Shown here: positions 8,505 through 34,791 of the stretch, piece by piece
Layout: every line of letters begins with the position of its first letter
How positions within the stretch are numbered: position 1 is the stretch's first letter
Assembly: GCF_000479335.1 (NCBI RefSeq)
Contig: NC_022584.1
Span: 1,178,001 to 1,242,000, forward strand
Length of the DNA: 64,000 nt
From: Streptococcus ilei
GTDB taxonomy: Bacteria; Bacillota; Bacilli; Lactobacillales; Streptococcaceae
Direction of reading: 5' to 3'
The notes under the pieces: model-generated
Database searches by the model: none
Seen by the model: the letters and a program-made list of their open reading frames with translations, nothing else
What the model was told of the DNA's origin: nothing
Made by a program: the position numbers and the translations under genes

Positions 8505-8637
8505 CCTATTATGAATATCGTTTTTGTTTACAGGGCGGATGTTCCGGTCCGCAAGTTATTTGAAAGGTTCCGGGGCCTTACAAATGGGGTAAACAATACC
8601 GCCTACTATTGTATCAAATTTTTAAGATAAAAGTCAA
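8505..8637 (-). promoter_or_regulatory. rplM promoter and L13-type leader
   Basis: On the minus strand TTGACT (8632-8637) and TACAAT (8608-8613) are spaced by 18 bases, followed by a roughly 100-base untranslated leader. The leader folds around GCGGA..TCCGC and GGCCCCGGAACC stems. Its place directly before rplM fits the L13 leader class of Firmicutes, an autoregulatory ribosomal-protein site; the class assignment is from position and not from a model search. Confidence 0.6.
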
Positions 8638-12025: not shown

Positions 12026-15000
12026 ATGCATTCTTCTTATAAGAAGCGTTTGTACACAAACGCACTCAGTCTCTCTACCGCTGTCCTATTAGCCTTCCTC
12101 GCACAAGGCCAAGTTGCTGCGGACACTGTTGAACCAGCAAGTCCTGCTACACCTGTCGAAAACGTCCTCAAGCCAGAGGAAACCAGTACTAGTCCGGCAA
12201 GCAGCACAGAGGCAACAAATCCTGCCCCTGCAACAGAAGCGACTGCTAGTCCAGCTGGGACAGGAGAAAGCTCTCCTACCGCTTCAGACACAGCGAGTCC
12301 TACAGCCAAAGTAGAAGCCCCTGTAACAGAGCGGGCTGCAAACGCAGAGCCTACTATCAGTCTTACTGATAGCCCTATTTACATGTCTGAAAAAGGGATG
12401 CTGACGGATACCGTCAAGGATCAAGCTCAGGCTGCTGGAAAGATCAACTGGACCTTGGACGACAAACCACTAGAAGAATGGAAAACTTGGGATATGGAGA
12501 CAGGTACTCTGTCCAAAGATCCCTTCATCACAGTTGAAGAGAACAAAAACGGAAATGATTTGGATCTAACCTTTACTGTCAAGGAACTCTTTGGTGAAGA
12601 TTTAAGTCTTCGGAGCCCTAATAATATCCGTCGGACCTATCGGAACTATATCGGTGAACACACTTTGGTTGGAACCAGCGCAGATCTTGGACTAACTATT
12701 CGCAAGAATCTAACCTTCCGTCCATATAAAGATTTCCATACCCACGAGGAGATGCTAGCTTCTATTGAACAGACAAAGGCAGAAGCCAAAACAGACCGTC
12801 TGGTTCAGCTCGAAACTCTTGGCAAGAGCGCCCAAGGACGGGATATGAAGATGGGAATTGTGAGTAAGGACCAAGCAAGTATTGACCACTATCTCTCATC
12901 TACCAATCCAAAAGCTTTGACCAAACCAAGTGAAATGCTGGCAGCTCTGAAGGACAAAACCTTAGATTACAAACTGCCTGTCCTAGTTCATAATACGCAT
13001 GCGGATGAACAACCTGGTATTGATATCATCACCGGTCTCTTCCGTACCTTCGCCACAGAAGATCAAGTCACTTTTAAAACGACAGACGAAGCTGGTAACG
13101 TCAAGAATGTGACTCTGGACATCCCAACTCTCTTAAATAAATTTATCTTCTTGTTTGACTTCACGGAAAACCCAGACGGGGATGCTCTCAACTTGCGTGC
13201 TTTGGCCAATGGACTGGATCCAAACCGGGATGCTAGCTACCAAACCAACCCAGAAGTGCGTACCGTCATCCAAATGATCAACAAGTGGAATCCAATCGCT
13301 CTCTATGATATCCATGGATTTGTCAAAGAATTCTTGATCGAGCCTGCAACACCTCCACATGATCCGAACTTTGAATACGACCTCATGTCCAACCTCATGT
13401 TGGAAAATGCCCGTCATATGGGACGGGCTGGAGTTGCCAATTCCAAATACGATAGCTACATCATTCCAAAACTAGACTGGGGAGATGGCTGGGATGATTC
13501 CTTCTCTGGGTATACAGGTGTCTATGCTGTCTATCACGGTATCCTAGGCCATACGATTGAAATTCCAGAATCCAACCAAGAATCTTATTATGCTGGTCGT
13601 AATGCTGTCCTCGGAGGCATTGACTTCCTCAACAAAGATCCAGACAAACTCCTTGAAATGCGTCTCAACTTCTACTTACGTGGTCTCAACAAAATTGAAG
13701 ATCCAAAAGCAGAAAACGAACTGGTCGGTCCAAATGGGGAAATCGTTGGACGTGTGAAAAATGGTCGTCCGAAATTCTTCCCAGACTACTATGTCATCCC
13801 AATGAGCCTCGACAAGGACAATGACGCCCAAGAAGCCTTCAATATGATCGACTACTTCAAACGAAACGGTGTCCTCGTTAAAGAACTCAAAGAAGATACA
13901 GGCAGCTACAAAAAAGGGGACTTAGTCATTGATATGGCCCAAGCCAAACGGGGCTATGCCAACCATATCCTCTATAAAGGTTCGAATGAATCCGCCTGGG
14001 CAGCCATGTATGCAGAACTTCTCGTTAACTTCCCTGATATGAAAGGCTTCAAGGCAGAACCTGTATTCAAGGACGGTCTCTTTGCTGGAAAACTTGGAGA
14101 AGTCACAACCACTCGCGCGACTCGGACCTCTGAGATCGATCCAAAAGCACCTTACTACGTCATCGCCAATACATCAGCTAGCGCTGTTCAAGCAGTAAAC
14201 AAGGCGATTTCCCAAGGCAAATCTGTTTACCTAACAGATGATGGTTACATCGTTGACCGCGATACCTTCGCATCGCTCCTTCCAAATTATGCTATTTACG
14301 GTGAAGCCCTCTACAAGGTTCCAAACGGTCCAACCTTAAAACCACTGAAAATCTACTCACCTAATTATCACTACAATTGGACTGGAGTAGATGCGCCTGC
14401 TCATACTAGTTTGGTTCTTGAAAAATTAGGTTTCCAAATCGTCGATACTCCTGAAGAGGCCGATGTCATTGTGCTTGAAAACAATCGCTATGATGCCTCC
14501 ATCTTCGGCAAGAAACCAACCCTCGTCATCGGCGGGGAAGCCATGCAGAAACTGGAAAAATTGGGAGTTCTTTCAGGATTTGATGCTGAAAAACTAAAAG
14601 GTGGCAGTGACTACGAGGGCTTGATGAAGGCCATCATTGATGACCAAGACCCACTGACCAGTGGTTACAAGAAGAACGCCCTCTTCTACTCCAACTCAGG
14701 AAACTGGATTGAAAAAGTTCCAAGCAACTTCAAGACCTTGATGAGTATCGCTTCAAGCGACTACTACATTGCGGGCTGGTGGCCAAAAAATGAGGTCCTA
14801 GCCAATAAGGTCATGGCCATTTCTGGGGAACTTCTCGGCCAACCACTCTTTGTCTATGCTGGAAATCCAACCAATCGCCAACACCCTGTCCACTTCTTCC
14901 GCTGGGTAACCAATGCGATCTTTGGTAGTAAGTTGGCTACCTTGACAGACTACGTTCCAGCTAAAGACCCAGATCAAGTGGTAGTTCCAATTCATAACCA

Positions 15001-15256
15001 AACAACCACTCAACAGCCAATCTTGGCCAAGAAGGACACTCCTACAGTTCTCCTTCCACAAAAAGAAACTACAGCTGAAACTGGAGAAAGCGTACAAGCC
15101 TTGGCCTACCAAGTTGGACAAAGCTTCCAAGAAAATCCAGCCAAGCCACAATTGCCACAAACTGGAGATCACTCAAGTGGACACTTTATCCTTTCAAGCT
15201 TCTTGCTAGCCGTTAGCGGTGGATTCCTCCTCTTGAAAAAGAAAGAAGTTGAATAA
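12026..15256 (+). CDS. LPXTG-anchored M14-family zinc carboxypeptidase
   Basis: 1076 residues. Signal peptide about 1-32 (hydrophobic LSLSTAVLLAFLAQG, cleavage near VAAD), a Pro/Thr/Ala/Ser-rich stalk to about 105, then an M14 domain. Zinc ligands H325 and E328 are in HADE and H430 in YDIHG; NPDG and LDPNRD match the substrate-binding stretch, and the catalytic Glu is E512 in HTIEIPE. About 450 further residues follow, then LPQTG at 1043-1047, a membrane helix and KKKE, the sortase A signal. It should trim C-terminal residues of peptides or glycopeptides outside the cell; the substrate is unknown. The RBS AAAGGAGG is strong and the promoter carries a cre site. A structured element lies 80 bases downstream. 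Confidence 0.9.
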   Translation: MHSSYKKRLYTNALSLSTAVLLAFLAQGQVAADTVEPASPATPVENVLKPEETSTSPASSTEATNPAPATEATASPAGTGESSPTASDTASPTAKVEAPVTERAANAEPTISLTDSPIYMSEKGMLTDTVKDQAQAAGKINWTLDDKPLEEWKTWDMETGTLSKDPFITVEENKNGNDLDLTFTVKELFGEDLSLRSPNNIRRTYRNYIGEHTLVGTSADLGLTIRKNLTFRPYKDFHTHEEMLASIEQTKAEAKTDRLVQLETLGKSAQGRDMKMGIVSKDQASIDHYLSSTNPKALTKPSEMLAALKDKTLDYKLPVLVHNTHADEQPGIDIITGLFRTFATEDQVTFKTTDEAGNVKNVTLDIPTLLNKFIFLFDFTENPDGDALNLRALANGLDPNRDASYQTNPEVRTVIQMINKWNPIALYDIHGFVKEFLIEPATPPHDPNFEYDLMSNLMLENARHMGRAGVANSKYDSYIIPKLDWGDGWDDSFSGYTGVYAVYHGILGHTIEIPESNQESYYAGRNAVLGGIDFLNKDPDKLLEMRLNFYLRGLNKIEDPKAENELVGPNGEIVGRVKNGRPKFFPDYYVIPMSLDKDNDAQEAFNMIDYFKRNGVLVKELKEDTGSYKKGDLVIDMAQAKRGYANHILYKGSNESAWAAMYAELLVNFPDMKGFKAEPVFKDGLFAGKLGEVTTTRATRTSEIDPKAPYYVIANTSASAVQAVNKAISQGKSVYLTDDGYIVDRDTFASLLPNYAIYGEALYKVPNGPTLKPLKIYSPNYHYNWTGVDAPAHTSLVLEKLGFQIVDTPEEADVIVLENNRYDASIFGKKPTLVIGGEAMQKLEKLGVLSGFDAEKLKGGSDYEGLMKAIIDDQDPLTSGYKKNALFYSNSGNWIEKVPSNFKTLMSIASSDYYIAGWWPKNEVLANKVMAISGELLGQPLFVYAGNPTNRQHPVHFFRWVTNAIFGSKLATLTDYVPAKDPDQVVVPIHNQTTTQQPILAKKDTPTVLLPQKETTAETGESVQALAYQVGQSFQENPAKPQLPQTGDHSSGHFILSSFLLAVSGGFLLLKKKEVE

Positions 15257-15283: not shown

Positions 15284-15315
15284 AAAAGAACCTTCGCAGA
15301 TGCGAAGGTTCTTTT
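15284..15315 (+). terminator. Terminator of the M14 peptidase gene
   Basis: Perfect 15-bp arms AAAAGAACCTTCGCA and TGCGAAGGTTCTTTT with a two-base loop; the flanks make it usable on both strands. Confidence 0.85.
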
Positions 15316-15334
15316 CGGAAATAAAATATTTTTC

Positions 15335-15472
15335 AAAACTTTCCTTAGGTGAGTACGGACGTCAGCGAACTTCTTCGAAGTTCCATGACTTAGTTTTGAG
15401 CCTAAGGTCTCAAAACTCCCGAGTGCTTGAAACAATAATGTTTCAAGCACTTTTCTCACAGCGGAAAGTTTC
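15335..15472 (+). ncRNA. Structured element, copy A (downstream of an LPXTG gene)
   Basis: About 138 nt closed by an outer stem AAACTTTCC (15336-15344) with GGAAAGTTT (15463-15471) and GTGAG (15349-15353) with CTCAC (15455-15459). Inside are three hairpins: GAACTTC/GAAGTTC (15367-15383), TTTTGAG/CTCAAAA (15394-15415, loop CCTAAGGT) and GTGCTTGAAAC/GTTTCAAGCAC (15423-15450). The loop CCTAAGG complements CCTTAGG at 15343-15349. Copy B at 32472-32612 has the same plan with compensatory base changes. Whether it acts as RNA, as a DNA repeat or as a processed 3' end is unknown. The following bases to 15585 show nothing recognisable. Confidence 0.55.
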
Positions 15473-15585
15473 AGTTTATACTTGACTGATTCTAAAGTAA
15501 TAGAAATCTTCTATAAATTTTTCAGAATATTTAATGAAAATACTATTCTACATCTTAAATTCTAACAATGATGCAAAGTTCCTTC

Positions 15586-32354: not shown

Positions 32355-32390
32355 AGAAAAAGACAAGAATCTTTTCAGATCATTGTCTTA
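32355..32390 (-). terminator. Distal terminator of the Cna-type adhesin
   Basis: Minus-strand hairpin GACAATGATCT and AGATTCTTGTC around GAAA, followed by TTTTTCTG. 32362-32390 repeats 32636-32664 with two changes. Between this and element B (32391-32471) the sequence is AT-rich and empty. Confidence 0.7.
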
Positions 32391-32471
32391 GAATAGAGAC
32401 AAATTTTTTAAAAATAAAAAAGTTAGATAATTACCCGAAAATGACTTTTATTTTTAGCCATTTAAGAAGAT

Positions 32472-32612
32472 CAAAATTTTCCGCTGTGAGAAAAATGCCT
32501 GAAACATAATTGTTTCAGGCATTCGGAATTATTGAGACCTTAGGCTCAATAATTAGACATGGAACTTTGATGAAGTTCGCTGACGTCTGTACTCACCTAA
32601 GGAAAATTTTTC
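32472..32612 (-). ncRNA. Structured element, copy B (downstream of an LPXTG gene)
   Basis: Minus-strand counterpart of copy A at 15335-15472. The outer stem is AAAATTTTCC with GGAAAATTTT; hairpins are GAACTT/AAGTTC, ATTATTGAG/CTCAATAAT with loop CCTAAGGT, and ATGCCTGAAAC/GTTTCAGGCAT. Unpaired parts (CCTTAGGTGAGTAC, GACGTCAGCG, TTCTCACAGCG) are almost unchanged while stem bases have changed on both sides. It lies 68 bases behind the Cna_B adhesin gene, on its strand, between two near-identical hairpins. Confidence 0.55.
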
Positions 32613-32635
32613 AGAAGACTTTATCTTCAATCTGA

Positions 32636-32664
32636 GACAATTATCTTTTCAGATCATTGTCTTA
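32636..32664 (-). terminator. Proximal hairpin after the adhesin gene
   Basis: GACAATGATCT and AGATAATTGTC around GAAA, 16 bases after the stop. It lacks a T run, so it may be leaky or an RNA-stabilising hairpin. It is the twin of 32362-32390. Confidence 0.5.
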
Positions 32665-32679
32665 TTTACATTGTAATTG

Positions 32680-34791
32680 TTAGTCAGCTTTCCGTTTACC
32701 ACTTAACAGCATCGCTGCAGCAACAAAAGCTAACAGTACACTTGCTCCAAACAAGCCATAAGAAGTAGCTTCACCAGTTGATGGAAGAATTTTTCTCTTT
32801 CCTTCTGTTGGTGTAGTTGGAGTTTCTGGTTTCTCCGATGTGCTTGGTGTGGTGGTCGATGGAGTCGTAGATGCTGGTGGAGGTGTAGTCGTAGACGGTG
32901 GCGGGGTTGTCGTAGATGGTGGGGGTGGAGGCGTACCTGGAGGGGTTGTAGGTGGTGTATGACGGTTGGTTACCGTAAAACCATCGATAGTTGCTGTATA
33001 CCCTGCTACTGGATCCTCTGTAATCGTGTAGACAATCTTCTTGCCTTCCTTGTATACTGGTAGATCCGTAAAGCTTGCCTGCCAATTGTCAGTAGCGATG
33101 ATTTCTTTTACGGCCACTTCTTGACCATCCGCAAGCAGACGGACTGTTACCTTATCTGGTCGAAGGCCATCTTTATTTTCCTTATCATCCCAGACTTTCT
33201 TGACAGCTACTTCTGTCACTTCTGGTGTACGGCTATTGGTAATATTCGTTCCTTCAACACTTGTTTCATACCCTGCAACAGGTTCTTCTGAAACTGTGTA
33301 GGCAATGAGATTACCAGCATCGTCAACAACATCAAGATTGTCGAACTGATAGAGCCAATTGCCTTCCGCATCTGGTTTCACTTCTTTAGAAGCTACTTTT
33401 ACACCGTTCGCTAAAAGATTGATGGTGATGACTGATGGGCGTTTACCATCATGATTGTCATTGTCATTCCAGGTTTTCTGACCAGAAATGCTGGTTTTTT
33501 CTTTTTTGTTGATGACTTCACGCGAAATCGCAAGGTCATTCCCAAAATCTTCTTTGCTGATCTTAATTGGCTCTTCTGAGAGGACGTATCCTGTCGGAGC
33601 TTGAATCTCTTGAACAGTATAAGCTTGCTTGATCAAGCCAGCAACGGTTCCTGTACCCTTCTCATCTGTGGTAATGGTTCCGACTTGCTCACCAGTGTCA
33701 TCTGCTGTCACAGTAAAGACAGCACCTGCAAGTGCTTGACCATTTTCTCCTTTTTTATGGATTGTGAAGGAATATTTCTCACCATTGAAGGCTCCTTCAA
33801 AGAATTGGTATAGAATATCTGCTTCTTTGTGTTGCTCTTTGACTTCTGTGGCAGTCATCGTCGCATTGTTTTTATATTCTGTATTGATGGCTGGGACCTT
33901 GTCCAAATAGACATCATAGCGAATGGTCATCCCTTGCTCAGGAGCTAGATCCCCGATATGAACAGTTAAAGAACGACCGTCCTCACTGACAACCGGAGAA
34001 TAATGGCTGGTTACATTTGTGGTATCCCGCAAATGATAGGCACCATCTTCGTCACTGATCTTCCAAGTTCCTGTATGGATATTAACTGAATCTACCTTGA
34101 TTTTACCATCTGTAAAGGCTAATTGGTCCTTAATATCAATATTATGGAGGGCAGTGTGACCTTGATTGATGTTCAAGGTATAAGTCAATTTCAATTTATC
34201 GCCTGAGTTTGTCCAGCCCCATTTGCTAAAGACCTCTGGAGTTGGAGGATACTCACCTGGATTGACTCCTTTATAATCAACCTTTCCACCTGAAATGACT
34301 GTTTTATCAACTGAAAGCGTAAAATCAAGTGTTGTATTTCCCTTAATCACGGAGTGGTCCACACGAGCAAAGAAACGCAACTTCCCTGTTACATTGGCCA
34401 TTTTTTCAGGATAGTCTGTATAGGTCACCGTGATGACTTTTCGTTGATCATCTACTGTCGCAGTTGCAACTTTTTGGCCAGTTGGATCCAATAGGTCAAT
34501 GGTATCTGTTTCAAAAACCTTAAAACCATCTCCAAGTTGGATGACTGTTTGATCGCCTGCTTTTACACGACCATTCGGTAAAACAAAGTTTGCTTCAACA
34601 TTGAAACTTTCCCAAACACCGAGTGGTTCTGTTAAGTCACCGCCAGTTGCTTTAGAGATGTTCACAGAGCTTACAACATCATTGATCGTATCGGCATGTG
34701 CTTTAGTAACCCCATTAGGTTTAGCAAATCCTAAAGCTGCTAATAAAAACAAGGCAACTGTTGTCACAACAGCATAGAGCCACTTTTTCAT
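32680..34791 (-). CDS. LPXTG surface adhesin with collagen-binding-like and Cna_B domains
   Basis: 703 residues. Signal peptide about 1-33 (VVTTVALFLLAALGFA..AHA). Residues about 40-340 resemble the paired collagen-binding/adhesin Ig-like domains of Cna-type MSCRAMMs. A SpaA-like domain follows (FTIHKKGENGQALAGAVFTV), then two Cna_B repeats (KTWNDNDNHDGKRPSVITI and KVWDDKENKDGLRPDKVTV, each ending Y-T-V/I-x-E-x-P-V-A-G-Y), probably with intramolecular isopeptide bonds. A Pro/Thr spacer leads to LPSTG at 669-673, a membrane helix and KRKAD. It is sortase-anchored to the wall and should bind a host protein; collagen is only a guess. Its promoter is at 34887-34915. Confidence 0.9.
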   Translation of the reverse strand: MKKWLYAVVTTVALFLLAALGFAKPNGVTKAHADTINDVVSSVNISKATGGDLTEPLGVWESFNVEANFVLPNGRVKAGDQTVIQLGDGFKVFETDTIDLLDPTGQKVATATVDDQRKVITVTYTDYPEKMANVTGKLRFFARVDHSVIKGNTTLDFTLSVDKTVISGGKVDYKGVNPGEYPPTPEVFSKWGWTNSGDKLKLTYTLNINQGHTALHNIDIKDQLAFTDGKIKVDSVNIHTGTWKISDEDGAYHLRDTTNVTSHYSPVVSEDGRSLTVHIGDLAPEQGMTIRYDVYLDKVPAINTEYKNNATMTATEVKEQHKEADILYQFFEGAFNGEKYSFTIHKKGENGQALAGAVFTVTADDTGEQVGTITTDEKGTGTVAGLIKQAYTVQEIQAPTGYVLSEEPIKISKEDFGNDLAISREVINKKEKTSISGQKTWNDNDNHDGKRPSVITINLLANGVKVASKEVKPDAEGNWLYQFDNLDVVDDAGNLIAYTVSEEPVAGYETSVEGTNITNSRTPEVTEVAVKKVWDDKENKDGLRPDKVTVRLLADGQEVAVKEIIATDNWQASFTDLPVYKEGKKIVYTITEDPVAGYTATIDGFTVTNRHTPPTTPPGTPPPPPSTTTPPPSTTTPPPASTTPSTTTPSTSEKPETPTTPTEGKRKILPSTGEATSYGLFGASVLLAFVAAAMLLSGKRKAD

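What the first reader, a model, noticed from the sequence alone, without database searches (positions are those of the whole stretch)
15335..15472. Covarying structured element behind two different LPXTG genes (copy A)
This 138-nt element and the one at 32472-32612 share an architecture of a closing stem and three hairpins. Stem bases differ on both sides and still pair (TTTTGAG/CTCAAAA versus ATTATTGAG/CTCAATAAT; GTGCTTG/CAAGCAC versus ATGCCTG/CAGGCAT), while loops and joints are nearly invariant. In both, the loop CCTAAGG can pair with CCTTAGG in the 5' arm as a pseudoknot. Each copy lies just downstream of, and on the sense strand of, a sortase-anchored protein gene. This is the best candidate for an undescribed RNA or mobile element here.
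Basis: partly seen in the sequence, partly recalled or inferred. Interest (0 to 1): 0.8.

Follow-up and report, generated by a model that had tools for sequence, protein, structure and literature searches.

The report
Mobile repeat that splits transcription terminators
The two structured elements are copies of a small mobile DNA repeat of streptococci that has the same ends as a known transposon family, sits in the stop signals of genes and leaves a copy of the stop-signal hairpin on each side; a relative is already catalogued as a small RNA.

Summary
The 138-nt element is the core of a ~246-bp repeat with 22 near-full-length copies at 86-100% identity in this genome. It matches Rfam RF02616 (SSRC8, "Streptococcus sRNA 8"), found in 170 of 197 Streptococcus genomes; both window copies score under that family's cut-off. 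Covariation is real (28 of 48 pairs), but wobble pairs are rare and show no RNA strand. The pseudoknot shows no covariation; the LPXTG link is not supported.

It is best read as a MITE. Its ends (CAGATTGAAGACAAAGTC / TAGAATGTAGACAAACTA) match, left to left and right to right, those of IS1182-family elements of other streptococci. Both insert at intrinsic terminators and duplicate the whole hairpin flush with their ends: 31 of 40 repeats, 13 of 25 IS; 18-38 bp. The A-tract stays outside on the left, the T-tract outside on the right, so transcripts from either neighbour should cross the element and stop at the far hairpin. Sites without the element carry one terminator. Cruciform cutting is inferred. 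No IS1182 partner was detected in this genome.

The parts
32389..32634 (-). MITE copy B, full element between its terminal CAG...CTA ends (246 bp)
   Evidence: ends recognised by the terminal repeats and by the flush hairpin duplication
32620..32634 (-). left terminal repeat CAGATTGAAGATAAA of copy B
   Evidence: sequence; same as left ends of IS1182-family elements
32389..32403 (+). right terminal repeat of copy B, read inward on the + strand: TAGAATAGAGACAAA
   Evidence: sequence; 3 mismatches to the reference 15-mer
32635..32662 (-). upstream copy of the duplicated terminator hairpin (A side outside, no T-tract)
   Evidence: AGACAATGATCTGAAAAGATAATTGTCT, 26 of 28 identical with the downstream copy by eye
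32361..32388 (-). downstream copy of the duplicated terminator hairpin, followed by the T-tract (32360 downwards)
   Evidence: AGACAATGATCTGAAAAGATTCTTGTCT then TTTTTC
32472..32612 (-). structured core of copy B: closing stem and three hairpins
32361..32680 (+). stretch around the Rfam RF02616 (SSRC8_2) match of copy B (window 32375-32650, + strand), 66.0 bits, model 1-281, below cut-off
   Evidence: G000:C1:1210375-1210650
32680..34791 (-). gene upstream of copy B: LPSTG protein with Cna_B, SpaA and collagen-binding domains
15316..15557 (+). MITE copy A, approximate extent; both terminal repeats eroded
   Evidence: alignment by eye and consensus; not among the 40 copies with recognisable ends
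15335..15472 (+). structured core of copy A (the finding)
15284..15315 (+). terminator hairpin left of copy A; no matching hairpin found on the right
   Evidence: position; flanks
15359..15424 (-). partial Rfam RF02616 match in copy A, 55.5 bits, model 145-210, below cut-off
   Evidence: G000:C1:1193359-1193424 minus
12026..15256 (+). gene upstream of copy A: LPQTG protein with a weak zinc-carboxypeptidase match

Best explanation
[quoted passage not shown] SHOWN: it has the same left and right terminal repeats as autonomous IS1182-family elements; both lie at intrinsic terminators; both are flanked flush by a duplicate of the whole terminator hairpin, whose length follows the hairpin; A-tract and T-tract are not duplicated but stay at the two outer sides. 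INFERRED: the transposase recognises the hairpin as a structure (an extruded cruciform), joins the element's 3' ends at the two 5' feet of the stem-loops, and repair copies the hairpin to both sides, which explains a duplication of variable length. INFERRED: on either strand the first hairpin met by RNA polymerase lacks its U-tract, so transcription from either neighbour runs through the element and ends at the far hairpin, which still has one; the insertion is therefore mild for the host and the element is transcribed from host promoters. The S. pyogenes 'sRNA' SSRC8, whose Rfam model runs from hairpin to hairpin, is best read as such a read-through product. The internal helices are kept near-perfect mainly at DNA level (quasi-palindrome correction), not necessarily for an RNA function.
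For: Repeat nature: 22 near-full-length copies at 86-100% identity plus longer, divergent and partial ones in this genome. Ends: over 40 of 107 copies with both ends recognisable the consensus is left CAGATTGAAGAcAAAGTC and right TAGAATGTAGACAAACTA; IS loci found by a Pfam search, blind to ends, carry MITE-like ends in inverted order around the transposase in 25 of 30, with the same left (AAAGTC/AAAGCC/AAAATC) versus right (mostly AAACT, AAACA) difference. Transposase: NF033551 IS1182 family, 443.9 and 448.8 bits against a cut-off of 270, for two of the IS; PF13751, PF05598, PF01609. Duplication: MITE 31 of 40 and, with stricter end patterns, 21 of 26, 18-34 bp, correlation with hairpin span 0.65; IS 13 of 25, 20-38 bp, as hairpins; in other streptococcal species 20 of 27 loci exceed the 99% null (chosen by a model that favours two hairpins). 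Tracts: IS, A in the 8 nt left of the hairpin 5.3 (left copy) v 1.4 (right copy), T right of it 1.5 v 5.2; MITE 4.8 v 2.2 and 2.2 v 5.5. Empty sites: L077 has a single terminator where L059 has the element between two copies, flanks 96-97%. Context: 0 of 107 copies between divergent genes. DNA-level upkeep: G-T 30 v A-C 44 in about 2,775 pairs. [quoted passage not shown] it cites Siguier et al. that some IS1182 members target palindromes.
Against: Mobility is inferred from sequence; no movement was observed. No IS1182 transposase (PF13751, E<=1e-10) was found in this genome, so it would have to move with a partner elsewhere or in the past. 67 of 107 copies have at least one end too eroded to recognise. 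12 of 25 IS with paired ends do not show the duplication: by eye they have unlike hairpins or only one. At three of the four close empty-site pairs the duplication is not clean: L120/L099 keeps the left copy but has a different right hairpin, L124/L076 and L047/L065 have only the right hairpin; a fifth 'empty' site, L080, holds what looks like an element remnant. The interior has no shown origin from the IS interior. The conserved loops and the 117-nt inner module are not explained by mobility alone.
Confidence: 0.88

Rival explanations
1. A functional non-coding RNA (the SSRC8 sRNA or a 3'-UTR regulator) that happens to be repeated; the covarying helices are selected as RNA.
For: Rfam RF02616 match; SSRC8 gave Northern signals and its ends were mapped by circular RACE in S. 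pyogenes (PMC3675131, passages and section 17); strong covariation with near-invariant loops.
Against: Multi-copy, terminator-bound, with transposon ends and target duplications. Wobble pairs are rare and not biased to one strand. No link to a gene class was found for LPXTG; other classes were not tested. The Rfam outer helix is made of the two duplicated host hairpins.
Confidence: 0.07
2. A member of the pneumococcal BOX or the S. suis BOX-type repeats (boxE-boxF).
For: Same composite plan: 5' part, 1-3 tandem inner modules, 3' part; Croucher 2011 gives boxE and boxF mean sizes of 115 and 133 nt in S. suis, close to the two halves here.
Against: BOX loci have other ends (ATACTCTTCGAAAATC...GATTTTCATTGAGTAT) and the core profile hits none of 30 BOX loci at E<=1.
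Confidence: 0.03
3. A retroelement or group IIC-intron-like element that inserts behind terminators.
For: Insertion at terminators, mostly in sense orientation (38 v 17 in codirectional settings, p = 0.006); structured interior.
Against: Inverted terminal repeats shared with a DDE transposon and a target duplication; no group II intron family reached its threshold in the window.
Confidence: 0.01
4. The inverted orientation of one hairpin copy at some loci shows that the hairpin flips during insertion (hairpin-capped intermediates).
For: 15 of 50 loci with matching hairpins have the right hairpin as reverse complement of the left, 22 direct, 13 uninformative; L162, L168, L176 and L184 show it clearly.
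Against: Six of the 15 look like one orthologous site (AACAATCCC...) and L023 is probably misaligned. In the 13 IS duplications no asymmetric base fits only the inverted reading: 11 informative ones are direct, 2 perfect palindromes. Later template switching between inverted arms fits better.
Confidence: 0.15

Closest known systems
IS1182 family (NF033551), streptococcal members with ends CAGATTGAAGACAAA
   Same: Terminal repeats including the left/right difference, terminator target, whole-hairpin duplication.
   Different: The repeat is 244-296 bp between its ends in 40 copies and so too short for the ~486-aa transposase; interior not derived from the IS as far as seen.
IS1272 of Staphylococcus (IS1182 family; Wan 2017, PMC5678879, passages seen)
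   Same: Stem-loops of unlike sequence as targets, structure-dependent model.
   Different: IS1272 replaces the stem-loop and leaves no duplication; here the stem-loop is duplicated, the outcome that paper draws as hypothetical pathway b.
Rfam RF02616 SSRC8_2 (Tesorero 2013, PMC3675131, passages and section 17 seen)
   Same: Homologous over most of the model; its outer helix corresponds to the two duplicated hairpins.
   Different: Described as a regulatory sRNA with partial homologs in other streptococci; the passages seen do not call it a repeat or mobile element.
BOX of S. pneumoniae and BOX-type repeats of S. suis (Croucher 2011, PMC3049150, sections 3, 4 part 1, 7 and 12 seen)
   Same: Short intergenic repeat with a modular A-Bn-C plan and strong fold.
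   Different: Other ends, no core similarity found, not set in duplicated terminators in the 30 loci viewed.
IS1202 family (PMC10132070, passages seen)
   Same: Long target duplications (16-28 bp in one subgroup) whose target was not found.
   Different: Ends are TGT...ACA; considered as mobiliser and dropped.

Membership tests
MITE of the IS1182 family | Terminal inverted repeats shared with an autonomous IS of the family | tested here: met
   transposase named. Copy B meets it; copy A's ends are eroded
MITE of the IS1182 family | Same target choice and type of target duplication as that IS | tested here: met
   31 of 40 MITE copies and 13 of 25 IS with flush hairpin duplication
MITE of the IS1182 family | Too short to encode the transposase | tested here: met
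   244-296 bp between ends; IS with a duplication are 1,064-1,692 bp
MITE of the IS1182 family | Autonomous partner in the same genome | tested here: not met
   no PF13751 match at E<=1e-10 in G000; 85 of 197 genus genomes have one. A partner in the same genome is usual, not required, for a MITE
MITE of the IS1182 family | Mobilised by the transposase | not testable with these tools
   needs a transposition assay
Rfam RF02616 SSRC8_2 | Score at or above the gathering score of 72 bits | tested here: inconclusive
   5 of 37 matches in this genome reach it, copy B 66.0 and copy A 55.5 do not; 24 of 197 genus genomes have one over it
Rfam RF02616 SSRC8_2 | Expressed as a discrete small RNA | not tested
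   no RNA data for this genome; published for S. pyogenes
BOX repeat | BOX ends and boxA/boxC sequence | tested here: not met
   core profile finds none of 30 BOX loci at E<=1; ends differ
BOX repeat | Composite A-Bn-C arrangement | tested here: met
   family members with 1-3 inner modules; the two window copies have none
S. suis boxE-boxF repeat | Sequence match to boxE and boxF | not testable with these tools
   models are on an FTP site not held here
Group II intron | Conserved intron domains | tested here: not met
   the only Rfam hit in the window at gathering score is L13_leader

The most novel reading that the evidence does not exclude
A genus-wide class of transposons and MITEs that parasitise intrinsic terminators by splitting them: the transposase reads the hairpin as a four-way junction, copies it to both sides and leaves A-tract and T-tract outside, so that host transcription from either side is steered through the element and stopped at the far end. 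The element thus gets host-driven transcription on both strands at little cost to the host, and at least one catalogued streptococcal sRNA family (SSRC8) is the product. A bolder addition, not excluded: the conserved loops and the 117-nt inner module form an RNA or ssDNA signal that helps the transposase find or act on the element.
Probability: 0.55. Interest if true: 0.75.

Novelty: new variant of a known kind. Interest (0 to 1): 0.62.

Why it matters
It gives a sequence-level answer to how an IS1182-type transposon chooses its target: the intrinsic terminator hairpin, duplicated whole, with a duplication as long as the hairpin. That outcome was drawn only as a possibility in the one structure-dependent model seen (PMC5678879). 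It also warns that an Rfam sRNA family, and other '3'-UTR' RNAs, can be read-through products of terminator-bound repeats, and that covariation in palindromic repeats need not mean selection on RNA. For annotation it names a repeat found, by its Rfam model, in 170 of 197 sampled Streptococcus genomes.

Tried and rejected
LPXTG association: tested, not supported (one search gave 6 by the same pattern in 107 copies). Pseudoknot: tested, not supported. BOX identity: tested, not found. IS1202 family as mobiliser because of its long duplications: the ends differ, and a search with PF09299 as its proxy rang nowhere, controls included, so it shows nothing. Search for the mobiliser by ends within loci already fetched and within this genome (27 matches with up to 2 mismatches, 14 of the loci viewed) gave no IS, but a 57-bp element of two left-type ends between two terminators. 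Full-length coding version inside the long forms: none seen. Plasmids and phages: no match for one copy. A regular-expression count of helix 2 over all copies failed (0 copies matched) and is not used. Empty-site search with the flank of L008 found only one other genome, itself with a match.

Literature: ten searches, judged from listings and passages, gave no paper that describes this repeat as mobile or a terminator hairpin as target duplication. The library lacks most subscription journals; ISfinder was not available. Siguier et al. 2014 is not held.

Rows dropped before counts: 133 copies reduced to 107 by flank similarity; 58 of 127 short copies for covariation; 26 and 40 of 107 with recognisable ends; L187 and L189 left out as partial matches; 74 of 134 loci without a hairpin on both sides and 10 more without a match left out of the flip count. 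The 30 IS loci are the best-scoring of many, and L304-L306 are near-identical. The six end variants used were listed, whose own patterns came from the MITE and also give both ends in 25 of 30.

Full report
1. Observation. Copy A and the reverse complement of copy B align end to end and fold into the same closing stem with three hairpins. Rfam at gathering score shows only an L13 leader in the window. A search of the genome with copy A gives 52 matches, among them 22 nearly full-length at 86-100% identity; a profile of the core spans 28 of the 30 loci taken from it. So this is an interspersed repeat, not a pair.

2. Anatomy. Aligned with flanks, the repeat extends beyond the core by about 36 nt on the left and 85 nt on the right. 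In the 40 of 107 non-redundant copies with both ends recognisable the ends are CAGATTGAAGAcAAAGTC (left) and TAGAATGTAGACAAACTA (right, read inward) and the element is 244-296 bp long. Longer forms exist: a 117-nt module, present in 131 of 197 Streptococcus genomes, sits one to three times between the two halves (L236 has three). The same site can hold the short form in one strain and a longer form in another (for example L057 and L118, flanks 96-98%).

3. Structure. 28 of 48 pairs have changes on both sides, more than in any of 500 shuffles. But of about 2,775 pairs 30 are G-T and 44 A-C on the given strand; helix 2 has 520 Watson-Crick pairs, no G-T and one A-C, although five of its nine pairs change type. 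Pairs therefore change mostly by full double substitutions, without the wobble intermediates that selection on an RNA strand would be expected to leave. I infer upkeep at DNA level, for instance by template switching in quasi-palindromes. The pseudoknot is not supported.

4. Flanks. In many copies the terminator hairpin left of the element is repeated to its right. Own left and right flanks match beyond the 99th percentile of mismatched pairs in 31 of 107. With both ends of the element fixed, the duplication is flush in 21 of 26 or 31 of 40, 18-34 bp long, and its length follows the hairpin (r = 0.65). In 27 loci of other streptococci, chosen by an Rfam model that favours two hairpins, 20 exceed the null. 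At sites without the element there is one terminator; the cleanest pair is L059 (occupied) and L077 (empty). At L120/L099 only the left copy matches; at L124/L076 and L047/L065 only the right hairpin remains. No copy of 107 lies between divergent genes.

5. Rfam. A permissive scan brought up RF02616 (SSRC8_2) on the opposite strand. In this genome it has 37 matches at E<=1, 5 over its cut-off. In the genus 170 of 197 genomes have a match at E<=0.001, 24 over the cut-off, and 0 of 14 control genomes; in the order 20 of 148, of which 17 are Streptococcus and one other genome has 12 matches. At E<=1 three control genomes rang weakly. The outer helix of the model pairs the two flanking hairpins, that is, the target duplication is built into the family. 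SSRC8 was detected by Northern blot and its ends mapped by circular RACE in S. pyogenes (PMC3675131).

6. The mobiliser. [quoted passage not shown] this pointed to the IS1182 family. A search with PF13751 found it in 85 of 197 genus genomes, not in this one. Of the 30 best loci 25 have MITE-like ends in inverted order around the gene, and 13 of these 25 are flanked flush by a duplicated hairpin of 20-38 bp, for example AAACGGATAACGCACCAAATATGGTGCGTTATCCGTTT (L321). Two transposases tested are IS1182 family by NCBIfam. Left and right ends of the IS differ (AAAGTC v AAACT or AAACA in most) and the MITE keeps that difference.

7. How it works. For both IS and MITE the A-tract lies only outside the left hairpin and the T-tract only outside the right one. 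The hairpin alone is the target. A duplication as long as the hairpin, whatever its length, is hard to reconcile with a fixed stagger on linear DNA and easy with cutting at the foot of an extruded cruciform; this step is inferred. It follows, also inferred, that RNA polymerase from either side passes a hairpin without U-tract, crosses the element and stops at the far hairpin. SSRC8 has the extent such a transcript would have after processing at the near hairpin.

8. Flipped hairpins. Among 50 loci with matching hairpins 22 are direct, 15 inverted, 13 uninformative; six of the 15 are probably one site and one is doubtful. The 13 IS duplications include none inverted. I read the inverted ones as later conversion between inverted arms.

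9. LPXTG. The window's two genes carry real sorting signals. Over 63 non-redundant upstream genes the pattern fits 5, by eye 3 real, against 0 of 40 control genes (p = 0.15).

10. Verdict. A terminator-splitting MITE of the IS1182 family, related to an Rfam sRNA; new in its combination, not in kind.

Noticed in passing
window 8521-8600, minus strand: Ribosomal protein L13 leader (RF00555), 61 bits.
   Followed up: no
L027, L028, L029 (G000 about 1896314, 1662569, 73956): A divergent version of the element (77% identity) lies in a stretch that is identical in three places of this genome, next to a reading frame that looks like a tRNA-binding domain; the next frame downstream continues in all three.
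   Followed up: partly
L286/L297 (G000:C1:1751314-1751368): A roughly 57-bp element made of two left-type terminal repeats facing each other, between two unlike terminator hairpins.
   Followed up: partly
L043, L130, L138 inner module: The tip of the inner module is replaced by another repeat-like sequence (GGAGCAGGACAGAAG...), so the module seems to take up further sequence.
   Followed up: no
L236 (G127): Three tandem 117-nt inner modules in one element; tandem modules also in G010.
   Followed up: partly
L173, L175, L176, L181, L074, L080: At what looks like one orthologous site both hairpins change together between strains while staying reverse complements of each other.
   Followed up: partly
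G314 (another family of the order): 12 RF02616 matches outside Streptococcus, the only such genome with many among those listed.
   Followed up: no
G000:C1:103748 and 1805356: Two pneumococcal-type BOX elements in this genome (pattern match).
   Followed up: partly
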